Origin: an uncultured Aquabacterium sp.
Lineage (GTDB): Bacteria > Pseudomonadota > Gammaproteobacteria > Burkholderiales > Burkholderiaceae_C
Length of the DNA stretch: 64,000 bases
Direction: 5' to 3'
Assembly: GCF_913773725.1 (NCBI RefSeq)
Contig: NZ_CAJYGK010000053.1
Span: 62,001 to 126,000 of the forward strand
Part shown: piece by piece, positions 52,229 through 57,397 of the stretch
Position numbering within the stretch: position 1 is the stretch's first letter
Layout: each line of letters opens with the position of its first letter
Position numbers and translations under genes: made by a program
The notes under the pieces: generated by a model
What the model was told of the DNA's origin: nothing
What the model saw: only the letters and a program-made list of their open reading frames with translations
Databases searched by the model: none

Positions 52229-52474
52229 ATGTCGTCCTCGCCCCCTCCTTCCGCCCCCACGGCTGTGCCCAGCCCTTGTCGCAGCCAGTGCAAGCTGGAC
52301 GAAGACAAGGTGTGCATCGGGTGCGGGCGCACCATCGACGACATCCGGGCGTGGCGTGACATGCCCGATGCCGAGCGGCTGGCCTGCGTGGCCCGGGCCG
52401 AGGCCCGCCGCCTGGCCGCTTCCGAGACCGCCTCGGCCTCGGACTCAGTGCGCGCCGCGGTTGAGCGTCTCTGA
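52229..52474 (+). CDS. DUF1289 family small protein
   Basis: An 81-residue protein with the DUF1289 signature: SPCRSQCKLDEDKVCIGCGRTIDDIRAW, four cysteines that probably bind a metal or Fe-S cluster, followed by a short helix (MPDAERLACVARAEAR). Function unknown; the family is widespread in Proteobacteria. It diverges from the ABC operon (91 bases apart), and its last 30 bases overlap the 3' end of the EutR-type gene on the other strand. Confidence 0.85.
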   Translation: MSSSPPPSAPTAVPSPCRSQCKLDEDKVCIGCGRTIDDIRAWRDMPDAERLACVARAEARRLAASETASASDSVRAAVERL

Positions 52475-53474
52475 GGGGCTCTCGCCGAACAGCTTGCGGT
52501 AGTCCAGCGCAAACTGGCTCAGGTGCCAGAAGCCCCAGCGGGCGGCCACGTCCTGCACGCCCTGGCCTTGAAGGGCGGCCTCGCGCAGGTGGCGGCGTGC
52601 GCCATTGAGGCGGATCGCGCGCAGGTACTGGATCGGGCTCAGGCCCATCACCTCTTCAAAGCAGTACTGCAGCGTGCGTCGGCTCACGTGAAGGCGTTCG
52701 CACAGCTCGGGCACGGTCACCGCCTGGTCGGGGTGCGCGAGCACGTAGGCGTGGGCCTGCGTCACGACCTTCTGCCGACGGGCCAGACTGTGCCGCATCG
52801 CGGTGTCGACCTCGCTGGTGTCCAGCAGATCGAGCAGCAGACTCAGCACGGCGCCTTCCATGGCCTGCAGGTCGGCATCGCGGCGGGCCGCGGGCTGTGG
52901 CTCACTCAGTGGCAGCAGCCCGTCGAGTGCATGCATGCAGGCAGGCCTGCCGGGCGTCGTCGCGGGCGCGCAGCACCTCTGCCTGCTGCAGCGCGTGCCA
53001 GTCCAGCCGGCAGCCCTGCTGCGCGGCGGCGTCCATCAGCGCCTGGCGCTGCACGACCACGCCGAACAGGCTGTGGCGGTCCGGGGTGACGAGCTCGAAG
53101 CGCTCTCCACCCGGGCGCACCATCACGTCATGCGTGCCGTGCAGGCGGCCGTTGATGCGGGTGGGCAGGGTGGCGAGCGGGTCGGGCACGCCGAACCAGA
53201 AGGAGTCTGTCCAGACCTCGCACGACTGGCGCAGCGCCTGGCTGGTCTGTTCGCGGAAGACCTGGATGTGGGGCAGCCGCCATTCGGTGAGCCGGCCCAC
53301 AAAGCGCCCCGGGCCCAGTTGATCGTAGTGCTGCTGCCAGGCCGTCAGGTTGTGGGCATGCTCGTCGACATCGTGGGCCCGCACCTCGTGCAGGCCCGCA
53401 TGCGCGGACGCCAGGGCGCCCCACAGTGGGGCGGCCGGGGCCGAAGGGGCGTCGACAGGGCGGGCTGAGGGCAT
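52445..53474 (-). pseudogene. eutR: AraC-family ethanolamine regulator (EutR-type), split by a frameshift
   Basis: Two abutting frames make one AraC-type regulator. The first (from ATG 53474) gives an N-terminal ligand-binding domain of about 180 residues including WTDSFWFGVPDP and DVMVRPGGERFELVTPDRHSLFG. The second (52936 to 52445) gives the linker and DNA-binding domain: VTVPELCERLHVSRRTLQYCFEEVMGLSP and VQDVAARWGFWHLSQFALDYRKLFGESPS, close to EutR. The join is at a TGCA-TGCA-TGCA run; removing one 4-base unit fuses the frames through ACLHALDG into about 341 residues, the usual EutR size. As written it is broken: decayed gene, phase-variable repeat or sequencing error. Its place beside eat-eutBC supports the EutR call. 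Confidence 0.8.
52928..52939 (-). repeat. Tandem TGCA x3 at the eutR frameshift
   Basis: Three TGCA units in a row sit exactly where the two halves of the regulator change frame (offset of one base). A two-unit version keeps the frame open. Preceding TGCC is one mismatch from a fourth unit. Such a short tetranucleotide run can expand or contract by slippage. Confidence 0.8.
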
Positions 53475-53558: not shown

Positions 53559-54386
53559 TCAGAAGGCCCGGGTCAGGCTGGCCACCCAGCGCGTGCCCAC
53601 CACATTCCGTCCGCGCCCGTTGGAATCGAAGAAGGTCCACAGTGCGGTGTCGCCCTTCTTGGCGTTGCCGGTGTTGTGGCTGGCCGCCAGCGAGAAGGTC
53701 CAGGGGCCTTCCACGCGCGACACACCCACCTTCACGTCGGTGAAGTTGTACGGGCCGAAGTTCTTGACGATCTGGCGGCCGGCATGCAGGTTCAGCGTCC
53801 AGCCGGGGGCGATCTCGGGGTTCCAGTTGGCCTCGACATAGGTCGAGCCGCGCGAGCTCTTGTTGACCCCGCTGTAGGGATCGACCGCGAAGGCGGCCCA
53901 GTGCGAGCTGACCGCGTACCAGACCCCGACGGACGCCGCGCCCTGGCTCACGGCGGCGTGCAGCTCCTGGGTGTCGTAGCTGACGTGCTTGCCATCGGCG
54001 TCGCGCGTGAAGGCACCCGGGAACCAGTAGCTGATGAAGCCCAGCTCCAGGCCCATGCCGGCGCCGATCTCGGTGCGCCAGCCGCCGTACAGGTCGATTT
54101 CGGTGCCCGAGCTGTTGGCGTAGGCGGCATTCGACACGCCCGAGCCGAACAGGCCCGCGAACCAGCCGTTGGTGTGGGTGGCGTCGAAGGTCAGTTGGGC
54201 GGCCGGCTTGCCCTGGGTCTGCGAGACCCCGCGGAACAGGTAGTCGGACACCACGCCGGCGGTGCCGGTCAGGGTCCAGCCAGAGGCCGTGGTGGTCTGG
54301 GCGTGGCCGGCCAGCGGGGCAAGCAGCGCGAGCGAGGCGGCCAGGGCGATCGAAGGCAGGCGGCGCAGCGAGAGGGGCAGGGACAT
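53559..54386 (-). CDS. TorF-family putative porin
   Basis: A 275-residue outer-membrane protein: signal peptide about 1-29 (ending GHA), then the TorF pattern GTAGVVSDYLFRGVSQTQGKPAAQ, GWFAGLFGSGV, LYGGWRTEIG and a C-terminal aromatic Phe (SLTRAF). It is probably a small beta-barrel. ATG 54386 has GGAG nine bases upstream. It is divergent from the ethanolamine permease, sharing a 205-base intergenic region with a long dyad, so it may be co-regulated and serve ethanolamine entry. That role is inference; the family is clear. Confidence 0.82.
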   Translation of the reverse strand: MSLPLSLRRLPSIALAASLALLAPLAGHAQTTTASGWTLTGTAGVVSDYLFRGVSQTQGKPAAQLTFDATHTNGWFAGLFGSGVSNAAYANSSGTEIDLYGGWRTEIGAGMGLELGFISYWFPGAFTRDADGKHVSYDTQELHAAVSQGAASVGVWYAVSSHWAAFAVDPYSGVNKSSRGSTYVEANWNPEIAPGWTLNLHAGRQIVKNFGPYNFTDVKVGVSRVEGPWTFSLAASHNTGNAKKGDTALWTFFDSNGRGRNVVGTRWVASLTRAF

Positions 54387-54449
54387 GCGTGAGGCTCCAG
54401 GGTGGTTGCGAAGACGTTCCCCAGTATTTCGGCAGTCGTGCGCCAAGCC

Positions 54450-54517
54450 TTATCAAGATTTGGCAAACCTGCAGGGGCGCCGGTGCTGCGCGGGGCAGGT
54501 TTGCCAAATTCCGATAA
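54450..54517. promoter_or_regulatory. Long interrupted palindrome between torF-type and eat genes
   Basis: ATTTGGCAAACCTGC at 54458-54472 and GCAGGTTTGCCAAAT at 54495-54509 are a perfect 15-bp inverted repeat around a 22-base GC-rich centre. Three bases outside each arm the symmetry resumes with TTATC (54450-54454) and GATAA (54513-54517). It lies 63 bases from the torF-type start and 74 from the eat start. The most likely role is the operator for the adjacent EutR-type regulator, controlling both directions. The symmetry is seen; the binder is inferred. Confidence 0.75.
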
Positions 54518-54591
54518 CGCGGCGGCCGGGGTGCTTCCTACATTGAGGCTCAGCTCCATCCACCCGGCTGCCCGATCAGCCCGTCGCCGCC

Positions 54592-55983
54592 ATGTCCACC
54601 CCTTCGTCACCCGGTTCGCACACCCTCAAACCCGTGCTGAGCACCCTGCAGCTCTGGGGCATCGCCGTCGGCCTCGTCATCTCGGGCGAGTACTTCGGCT
54701 GGAGCTTCGGCTGGGCCTCGGCCGGCACGCTCGGCTTCATGGTCACGGCGCTGTTCGTGGCCGCGATGTACACCACCTTCATCTTCAGCTTCACCGAACT
54801 GACCACGTCGATCCCGCATGCCGGCGGGCCGTTTGCCTACAGCCGCCGCGCCTTCGGGCCCACCGGGGGCTATCTGGCCGGGGCCGCCACCTTGATCGAG
54901 TTCGTGTTCGCGCCACCGGCCATTGCGCTGGCCATCGGGGCCTACCTCAACGTGCAGTTCCCATCGCTCGACCCCAAGACGGCGGCCCTGGGCGCCTACC
55001 TGATCTTCATGGGGCTCAACATCGTCGGCGTGCAGATTGCCGCCACCTTCGAACTGCTGGTGACGCTGCTGGCCATCTTCGAGCTGCTCGTCTTCATGGG
55101 CGTGGTCTCGCCCGGTTTCTCGGTGGCCAACCTGGTCAAGGGCGGTTGGTCCGGGCAGGACGAATTCAGCCTGGCGGCCATCCCCGGCATCTTCGCTGCC
55201 ATCCCGTTTGCCATCTGGTTCTTCCTGGCGATCGAAGGCGTGGCCATGGCCGCGGAAGAAGCCAAGGACCCGAAGCGCTCCATTCCCGTCGCCTACATCG
55301 CGGGCATCCTGACGCTGGTGGCGCTGGCGATCGGCGTGATGGTGTTTGCCGGCGGTGCCGGCGACTGGACCCAGCTGGCCAACATCAACGACCCGCTGCC
55401 CCAGGCCATGAAGATGATCGTGGGCGAGAACAGTGGCTGGCTGCACATGCTGGTGTGGCTGGGCCTCTTCGGCCTGGTGGCGAGCTTCCACGGCATCATC
55501 CTGGGCTACTCGCGCCAGATCTTCGCGCTGGCCCGTGAAGGCTACCTGCCGGCCTACTTCGCCCAGGTTCATCCGCGCTTCCACACCCCGCATCGCGCCA
55601 TCCTGGCGGGCGGCGTCATCGGCATCGCGGCCATCTACAGCGACGAGCTGATCCAGTTCGGCGGCCAGACGCTGACAGCCAACATCGTCACGATGGCCGT
55701 CTTCGGCGCGATCCTGATGTACATCCTCAGCATGCTGAGCCTGTTCAAGCTGCGCCGCAGCGAGCCGGGCATGGCGCGGCCCTTCCGTGCGCCGATGTAC
55801 CCGGTCTTCCCCGCCATCGCGCTGGTCGGTGCCACCGTCTGCATGGTCGCCATGGTCTATTACAACTTCTTGATCTTCTGCGTGTTCGTCGCCATGCTGG
55901 CCGTGGGCTACGTCTACCACCGTGCCACGGGCCACCAGCGCACGGAGGCACCGACCGCGCCCGCCACCCCTGCCCTGCACTGA
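54592..55983 (+). CDS. eat: Ethanolamine permease
   Basis: A 463-residue APC-superfamily transporter with about twelve membrane segments. The N-terminal LWGIAVGLVISGEYFGWSFGW and ELTTSIPHAGGPFAYSRRAFGP match the Eat ethanolamine transporter, as does AIEGVAMAAEEAKDPKRSIP in the middle. It imports ethanolamine at the inner membrane. It starts the operon eat-eutB-eutC (4 bases to eutB) and faces the dyad at 54450-54517. No microcompartment shell genes follow, as in other minimal eut loci of Proteobacteria. Confidence 0.9.
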   Translation: MSTPSSPGSHTLKPVLSTLQLWGIAVGLVISGEYFGWSFGWASAGTLGFMVTALFVAAMYTTFIFSFTELTTSIPHAGGPFAYSRRAFGPTGGYLAGAATLIEFVFAPPAIALAIGAYLNVQFPSLDPKTAALGAYLIFMGLNIVGVQIAATFELLVTLLAIFELLVFMGVVSPGFSVANLVKGGWSGQDEFSLAAIPGIFAAIPFAIWFFLAIEGVAMAAEEAKDPKRSIPVAYIAGILTLVALAIGVMVFAGGAGDWTQLANINDPLPQAMKMIVGENSGWLHMLVWLGLFGLVASFHGIILGYSRQIFALAREGYLPAYFAQVHPRFHTPHRAILAGGVIGIAAIYSDELIQFGGQTLTANIVTMAVFGAILMYILSMLSLFKLRRSEPGMARPFRAPMYPVFPAIALVGATVCMVAMVYYNFLIFCVFVAMLAVGYVYHRATGHQRTEAPTAPATPALH

Positions 55984-55987
55984 CACG

Positions 55988-57397
55988 ATGACCGGCTCTG
56001 CATCGCACCGCTACACCCACCGCGTCGGCACGCAGACCTTCGGCTTTCGCGACCTGAAGGACCTGATGGCCAAGGCCACGCCCGCGCGCTCCGGCGACCG
56101 GCTGGCCGGCGTGGCCGCAGGCTCGGCGCAAGAACGCGTGGTGGCCCAGATGGCGCTGGCCGAGTTGCCGCTGGCCACCTTCCTGAACGAGGCGCTGATC
56201 CCGTATGAGGAAGACGAGGTCACCCGCCTCATCCTCGACACGCACGATGCCACGGCCTTTGCGCCCATCGCCCACCTGACGGTGGGCGACTTCCGCAACT
56301 GGCTGCTGGCCGACGACACCGATGCCGATGCGCTGGCCGCGGTGGCACCCGGCATCACGCCCGAGATGGCCGCGGCCGTCAGCAAGATCATGCGCAACCA
56401 GGACCTGATCCTGGTGGCCCGCAAATGCGCGGTGCGCTCGGCTTTTCGCAACACCATCGGCCTGCCGGGGCGCTTTTCCACCCGGCTGCAACCGAATCAC
56501 CCGACCGACGACGCCAGCGGCATCGCGGCCAGCATGCTCGACGGCCTGCTCTATGGCAGCGGCGACGCCGTCATCGGCATCAACCCCGCCACCGACAACG
56601 TGCCCCAGGTCATCAAGCTGGTGACCATGATGGCCGAGGTGATCGACCGCTACGAGATCCCCACGCAGTCGTGCGTGCTGACCCACGTCACCAACACCAT
56701 CCAGGCCATCGAGCGCGGCGCGCCGGTCGACCTGGTCTTCCAGTCCATTGGCGGCACGGAGGCCACCAACCGCAGCTTCGGCATCGACCTTGCCGTGCTG
56801 GGCGAGGCCCGCGCGGCGGCGCTGTCGCTGCACCGCGGCACGGTCGGCGACGACGTCATGTACTTCGAAACCGGCCAGGGCAGTGCGCTGTCGGCCAACG
56901 GCCACCATGGTGTCGACCAGCAGACCTGCGAGGCCCGCGCCTATGCCGTGGCGCGTCACTTCAAGCCGCTGCTGGTCAACACGGTGGTGGGCTTCATCGG
57001 GCCAGAGTACCTGTACGACGGCAAGCAGATCATCCGCGCCGGGCTGGAAGACCACTTCTGCGCCAAGCTGCTGGGCCTGCCCATGGGCTGCGACGTCTGC
57101 TACACCAACCATGCCGAAGCCGACCAGAACGACATGGACGTGCTGCTGACGCTGCTGGCCGCGGCCGGCTGCACCTTCGTGATGGGCATCCCGGGTTCGG
57201 ACGACATCATGCTGAACTACCAGACCACGTCCTTCCACGATGCGCTGTATGCGCGCCGCGTGCTGGGCTTGCGGCCGGCGCCCGAGTTCGAAGCGTGGCT
57301 GGCCCGCGTGGGCATCTTCAGCCAGGCCGATGCCGGCTTCCGCCTGCCGGAGGGCATGCCGGCCTTGTTTCAGCCTGCGCTCAAGGGGGCGGCCTGA
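55988..57397 (+). CDS. eutB: Ethanolamine ammonia-lyase large subunit
   Basis: A 469-residue TIM-barrel subunit. [52 protein letters not shown] and [17 protein letters not shown] are unmistakable EutB motifs; [20 protein letters not shown] and [14 protein letters not shown] complete the active site that holds substrate and the adenosyl radical. With EutC and adenosylcobalamin it splits ethanolamine into acetaldehyde and ammonia in the cytoplasm. ATG 55988 lies 4 bases after eat; the stop overlaps eutC by one base (TGATG). Confidence 0.96.

What the first reader, a model, noticed from the sequence alone, without database searches (positions are those of the whole stretch)
54450..54517. 68-bp interrupted palindrome in the divergent torF-eat region: candidate EutR operator
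Two perfect 15-base arms (ATTTGGCAAACCTGC and its complement) with a 22-base centre, plus TTATC/GATAA symmetry three bases beyond each arm. A dyad this long is very unlikely by chance in GC-rich DNA, and the arms are AT-rich islands. It stands between the porin gene and the ethanolamine operon, next to an AraC/EutR-type gene, so it probably controls both. I know of no described EutR site of this form.
Basis: partly seen in the sequence, partly recalled or inferred. Interest (0 to 1): 0.75.

Follow-up and report, generated by a model that had tools for sequence, protein, structure and literature searches.

The report
Mirrored EutR boxes between torF, eat
The palindrome looks like two back-to-back copies of a conserved switch site for the ethanolamine regulator EutR, one facing the ethanolamine uptake operon and one facing a porin gene that was probably drawn into the same response.

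Summary
The dyad is real, exactly at 54450-54517, and unlikely by chance. A motif trained on 17 relatives without the window finds the box upstream of eat in 61 of 80 named loci (60 of 79 without one copy of a training locus), against 5 of 2163 control stretches. In a blind search 7 of 9 consensus hits lie before eat. A -10-like hexamer follows at 19-20 nt in 67 of 80 forward boxes, the geometry of an AraC-type activator at -35. Of 25 loci without the box 9 have a sigma-54 element, against 0 of 80 with it. In the genus the second box occurs in the 4 genomes with torF beside eat and not in the 2 without. EutR sites are already known in enterics, so the kind is known; the mirrored pair and the TorF link were not found in the papers searched. 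Binding is not shown, and the window's own eutR is split by a frameshift.

The parts
54500..54518 (+). right EutR-type box TTTGCCAAATTCCGATAAC, facing eat
   Evidence: 29.0 bits with a motif trained without the window; next best non-box place in the window 10.6
54449..54467 (-). left EutR-type box TTTGCCAAATCTTGATAAG, facing torF
   Evidence: 21.0 bits; kept in L123-L125 (21.0, 15.7, 15.7)
54473..54494 (.).
   Evidence: alignment
54539..54544 (+). -10-like hexamer TACATT, 20 nt after GATAAC, for eat
54423..54428 (-). -10-like hexamer AATACT, 20 nt after GATAAG, for torF; same hexamer at the same distance in L123-L125
54592..55983 (+). eat, ethanolamine permease
   Evidence: TIGR00908, 653.6 bits, cut-off 381.75
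55922..57397 (+). open frame of eutB, ethanolamine ammonia-lyase large subunit
   Evidence: PF06751, 736.8 bits
53559..54386 (-). torF, TorF-family putative porin
   Evidence: PF09694 131.5 bits, TIGR02001 118.7 bits
52902..53474 (-). N-terminal part of the split EutR-like gene
   Evidence: NF007522 127.1 bits, model 32-191
52445..52936 (-). C-terminal, DNA-binding part of the split EutR-like gene
   Evidence: PF12833 89.4 bits; NF007522 122 bits, model 214-343

Best explanation
The dyad is a divergent operator made of two asymmetric EutR-type boxes set back to back. In each box one helix-turn-helix of the AraC-family regulator EutR would contact TTTGCC and the other GATAA(C/G). GATAA(C/G) lies at the -35 position, so bound EutR, activated by ethanolamine and adenosylcobalamin as in enterics, would bring sigma-70 polymerase to a -10 about 20 nt downstream. 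The right box drives eat-eutBC and is the widely conserved one. The left box is probably an inverted duplicate of it that goes with torF and drives that porin gene. Shown: sequence, conservation, position, -10 spacing, co-occurrence with eutR and torF. Inferred: binding, activation, ligands, the duplication, the role of TorF.
For: Box in 61 of 80 named eat loci against 5 of 2163 control stretches at 15 bits, and 62 against 24 at 10 bits. With eutR just upstream of eat 25 of 29 held-out loci have it, with eutR downstream 9 of 9. The box moves with the head of the transcription unit: before torF in Zoogloea L094 and Aromatoleum L114, where torF precedes eat, and before eutB in L103. Blind consensus search: 7 of 9 hits directly before eat. 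A TATAAT-like hexamer (4 of 6 or better) 19 or 20 nt downstream in 67 of 80 forward boxes, against 0.55% of positions in the window. In the genus: two boxes in 4 of 4 genomes with torF between eutR and eat, one box in 2 of 2 without. The torF-facing box has a -10-like hexamer at 20 nt in the window, L123, L124 and L125; the left boxes of four pairs without torF (L025, L030, L031, L033) have none. E. coli EutR shares the first recognition helix (HVSRRTLQ) and much of the second, and a similar block stands before eutS in E. coli.
Against: No binding or expression data. The box is present in L028 although its genome G012 gives no EutR match, and in 27 of 42 held-out loci where eutR is not seen within the flanks. 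G162, a genome of the sigma-54 type (L011), has an EutR-like gene elsewhere. No genome of the 25 searched, and neither of two intact genus copies, reaches the EutR cut-off of NCBIfam. The E. coli block matches only 14 of 19 letters, which 17 of 300 resampled sequences also reach, and L119 13 of 19 (79 of 300); L121 and L122 show none. Mirrored pairs without torF exist. The four torF genomes of the genus are probably one event. The window's eutR is split.
Confidence: 0.82

Rival explanations
1. Both boxes serve eat alone: the left one is an auxiliary upstream site (looping or cooperative binding, as other AraC-family proteins use; recalled) and torF is not regulated by it.
For: Mirrored pairs also occur where the divergent neighbour is eutR, and there the left boxes of L025, L030, L031 and L033 have no -10-like hexamer at 17-22 nt, although they score higher than the right ones.
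Against: In the window and L123-L125 the left box has a -10-like hexamer at 20 nt facing torF. The second box is absent from the two genus members without torF there. In L094 and L114 torF itself has the box.
Confidence: 0.2
2. The boxes belong to a regulator other than EutR.
For: The box is present where eutR is not seen (27 of 42 held-out loci) and in L028, whose genome has no EutR match.
Against: Box with eutR just upstream in 25 of 29 and downstream in 9 of 9 held-out loci; two of the four misses have it before torF. Similar block at E. coli eutS, an established EutR target (PMC4643982, passages).
Confidence: 0.08
3. The inverted repeat acts as RNA or as a cruciform: a hairpin, attenuator or terminator.
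For: As RNA the stretch folds to -38.6 kcal/mol, z -4.56.
Against: The dyad lies upstream of both -10 candidates, so it would not be in either transcript; no Rfam match; no terminator-like site; single boxes without any dyad are conserved in most loci; the fold follows from any perfect dyad.
Confidence: 0.03
4. Chance dyad.
For: None found.
Against: Mean 0.017 per resampled window; boxes kept in L123-L125 while the centre diverged.
Confidence: 0.01

Closest known systems
EutR site at the eut promoter P1 of enterobacteria (PMC5821096, section 8 read)
   Same: AraC-family EutR, site just upstream of -35, ethanolamine operon; E. coli eutS upstream has CTTGCCGAATTTTGTTATT against TTTGCCGAATTTCGATAAC here
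   Different: Second half differs (GTTATT against GATAAC); here the short eat-eutBC operon, two mirrored boxes, and a porin as second target. The published motif could not be compared: the two sources are not held
EatR/RpoN ethanolamine promoter of Pseudomonas aeruginosa (PMC5821096, passages)
   Same: Same operon content, eat-eutBC
   Different: Sigma-54 -24/-12 promoter and enhancer-binding protein; that element is absent here
Divergent AraC-family operators such as araBAD-araC (recalled)
   Same: Asymmetric AraC-type sites between divergent genes
   Different: Here the divergent neighbour is torF, not the regulator gene, which stands beyond torF

Membership tests
EutR-regulated ethanolamine promoter | AraC-family EutR-like gene in the locus | tested here: met
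   Two pieces match NF007522 over model 32-191 and 214-343; intact 341-aa copies in L144, L145, L146. The gene is split in the window
EutR-regulated ethanolamine promoter | Regulator reaches the NCBIfam EutR equivalog cut-off (319 bits) | tested here: not met
   Intact genus copies score 247.3 and 251.1; best of 25 genomes 255.1. So EutR-like, not a curated EutR
EutR-regulated ethanolamine promoter | Conserved box at or just upstream of -35 of the first eut gene | tested here: met
EutR-regulated ethanolamine promoter | Box matches the enteric EutR site | tested here: inconclusive
   14 of 19 letters at E. coli eutS, reached by 17 of 300 resampled sequences; 17 of 19 in L120, reached by 0 of 300; published motif not read
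EutR-regulated ethanolamine promoter | EutR binds the site and needs ethanolamine and adenosylcobalamin | not testable with these tools
   Needs gel shift, footprint and reporters
EatR/sigma-54 ethanolamine promoter | -24/-12 element with at most one mismatch within 250 bp upstream of eat | tested here: not met
   0 of 80 box-bearing loci, the window included; 9 of 25 loci without the box
RNA attenuator or riboswitch | Rfam match or terminator in the leader | tested here: not met

The most novel reading that the evidence does not exclude
TorF-family porins are an ethanolamine-induced outer-membrane entry route that was recruited several times to eut loci: by mirroring of the EutR box in this genus, and by insertion into the operon in Oxalobacteraceae, Zoogloea and Aromatoleum. 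This would give a porin family of unknown substrate a function and show how a gene joins a regulon by inverted duplication of an operator.
Probability: 0.45. Interest if true: 0.55.

Novelty: new member of a known kind. Interest (0 to 1): 0.42.

Why it matters
It gives a precise, testable EutR box for the short ethanolamine operons of Burkholderiales, separates EutR-type from sigma-54-type promoters of the same operon, and ties a putative porin family to ethanolamine use. It also offers a clean case of a gene being added to a regulon by a mirrored operator.

Tried and rejected
Rejected: the palindrome as the operator unit; hairpin or attenuator; a sigma-54 element in the arms. My first print of upstream regions was on the wrong strand for 12 loci, because loci from the genome search are not oriented; corrected. 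Further targets in the own genome: of 12 pattern hits with up to 2 mismatches (reversed control 9) only the two boxes and one place at C86 have 0 or 1, and C86 was not followed, so no further target is claimed. Literature searches showed in their listings no paper on an EutR site in Burkholderiales or on TorF and ethanolamine; two papers likely to hold the enteric motif are not held. 'EutR' in PMC5320631 is a MocR-type ectoine regulator (passages).

Limits of counts: the 15-bit threshold was set after seeing the scores (held-out values fall at 17.0 and above or 11.4 and below). L115 repeats training locus L017 and L105 repeats L015; both are kept in the counts unless said. Many loci are close kin, so p values are not corrected. 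The mirrored-pair pattern is strict and missed four known pairs (L025, L030, L031, L033).

Full report
What is there. The dyad stands as described. It is the only perfect 15-base inverted repeat with a gap of up to 60 in the window, against a mean of 0.017 in 60 resampled windows. Neighbours: torF (53559-54386, minus), eat (54592-55983, plus), eutB, and beyond torF an AraC-type gene in two overlapping frames whose best NCBIfam model is EutR.

The unit is a box, not the palindrome. Of 200 family genomes 25, the own one included, have eat. Of the 24 others 17 have eutR within 2 kb upstream. A 24-column motif trained on those 17, without the window, reads tTTtCCGAaTtnGGATAGCGCcgg. The window scores 29.0 bits at 54500 (plus) and 21.0 at 54444-54467 (minus); the next place in 64 kb scores 10.6. 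So each arm plus its outlying GATAA is one asymmetric box, and the dyad is two of them back to back. Of the 7 loci left out of training one, L028, has the box.

Held-out test. An eat alignment fetched 80 named loci, the best 80 of a longer, capped list. The box (15 bits or more, from 320 bp upstream to 25 bp inside eat) is in 61 of 80, or 60 of 79 without L115, a copy of a training locus. Control stretches of 345 bp from the same 105 loci: 5 of 2163. At 10 bits: 62 of 80 against 24 of 2163. Four of the five controls lie in eut loci: before eutB in L103, before torF in L094 and L114, and beside an EutR-like gene in L097. The fifth, L072 at 15.1 bits, was not examined. With eutR just upstream of eat 25 of 29 have the box; the misses are L094 and L114 (box before torF), L110 (11.4 bits) and L038 (4.8 bits). 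With eutR downstream 9 of 9; with eutR not seen in the locus 27 of 42.

Blind tests. TTTGCCGAWTTTCGATAAC with at most one mismatch gave 9 hits in 9 of 399 genomes of the order; 7 lie directly before eat and 2 (L155, L156) gave no match to eat, eutR, eutB, torF or eutS. The reversed control had none in the rows listed. The mirrored pair was found in 3 of 399 family genomes, all three at eat: the window, G1055 and G1174, the last two with eutR as divergent neighbour. That pattern is strict and missed the pairs of L025, L030, L031 and L033.

Promoter geometry. Over 68 distinct forward sites a TATAYT-like hexamer stands out 19-20 nt after GATAAC. Of 80 forward boxes 67 have 4 of 6 or better there; the rate over the window is 0.55%. 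So GATAAC lies at -35, where a review places EutR of enterics (just upstream of -35). In the window TACATT stands at 20 nt on the eat side and AATACT at 20 nt on the torF side.

Why two boxes. In the genus 6 of 42 genomes, the own one included, have eat. Four (window, L123, L124, L125) have torF between eutR and eat and two mirrored boxes. Two (L126, L127) have eutR next to eat and one box. A torF of 89% identity or more occurs in those same four of 42 genomes; more distant TorF relatives occur in others. The centre differs between the window and L124/L125 while the boxes stay, and both arms differ together at one letter. AATACT at 20 nt is kept in all four genomes, whereas the left boxes of four pairs without torF have no such hexamer at 17-22 nt. 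Elsewhere torF lies between eat and eutB in seven loci (L044, L048, L055, L057, L080, L089, L109) and before eat in Zoogloea L094 and Aromatoleum L114, where the box stands before torF. Of the 80 named loci 11 have torF within the flanks: 8 of the 61 with the box and 3 of the 19 without (L094, L110, L114). A small unrooted tree puts the eut-linked TorFs in at least two groups, which suggests repeated recruitment.

Two kinds of promoter. Of 25 loci without the box 9 have a -24/-12 element with at most one mismatch, against 0 of 80 with it; Fisher p 7e-7, not corrected for kinship. This fits the EatR/RpoN type of P. aeruginosa (PMC5821096, passages). One genome of that kind, G162, nevertheless has an EutR-like gene elsewhere.

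Relation to enteric EutR. E. coli EutR is 38% identical to an intact genus copy and shares HVSRRTLQ and much of the second helix-turn-helix. Before eutS, E. coli and L118 have CTTGCCGAATTTTGTTATT at -73, L119 GTTGCCGAAATTTGTTATT at -68, L120 TTTGCCGATTTTCGATAGG at -72; L121 and L122 have nothing comparable. Of 300 resampled sequences each, 17 reach the E. coli value, 79 that of L119 and 0 that of L120. A review states that the enteric EutR site was predicted by comparative genomics and confirmed by footprint (section 8); the sources are not held. So the kind is known.

The regulator here. The window's EutR-like gene is interrupted by a frameshift; intact 341-aa copies exist in G592, G624 and G591. 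Whether the break is real or an assembly error cannot be told here. The only EutR matches in the own genome are the two pieces.

Verdict. A divergent EutR-type operator of two boxes: known in kind, with an arrangement and a likely target, torF, for which the searches above showed no earlier report. Odds: two boxes 0.82 as stated; TorF as an ethanolamine porin 0.45.

Noticed in passing
52445-53474: The EutR-like gene of the window is split into two overlapping frames; close relatives carry an intact copy.
   Followed up: partly
L103, 5820-5993: eutB has its own upstream box (31.3 bits) where eat and eutB are far apart.
   Followed up: yes
L097, 500-4000: eat stands behind two other open frames; the box lies at the head of the group, next to an EutR-like gene. 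Possible wider regulon.
   Followed up: partly
L018, 122 nt apart upstream of eat: Two boxes in the same orientation (30.2 and 18.1 bits) instead of mirrored.
   Followed up: no
L039, L040, L042, L052: Herbaspirillum loci have about 1.4 kb between eat and eutB with no match to torF; content not examined.
   Followed up: no
54458-54509 against L124/L125: Both arms differ together at one letter (CCA/CCA against CCG/CCG), as if the arms were kept alike by conversion or selection.
   Followed up: no
L028 (genome G012): A 21.2-bit box before eat in a genome with no EutR match.
   Followed up: no
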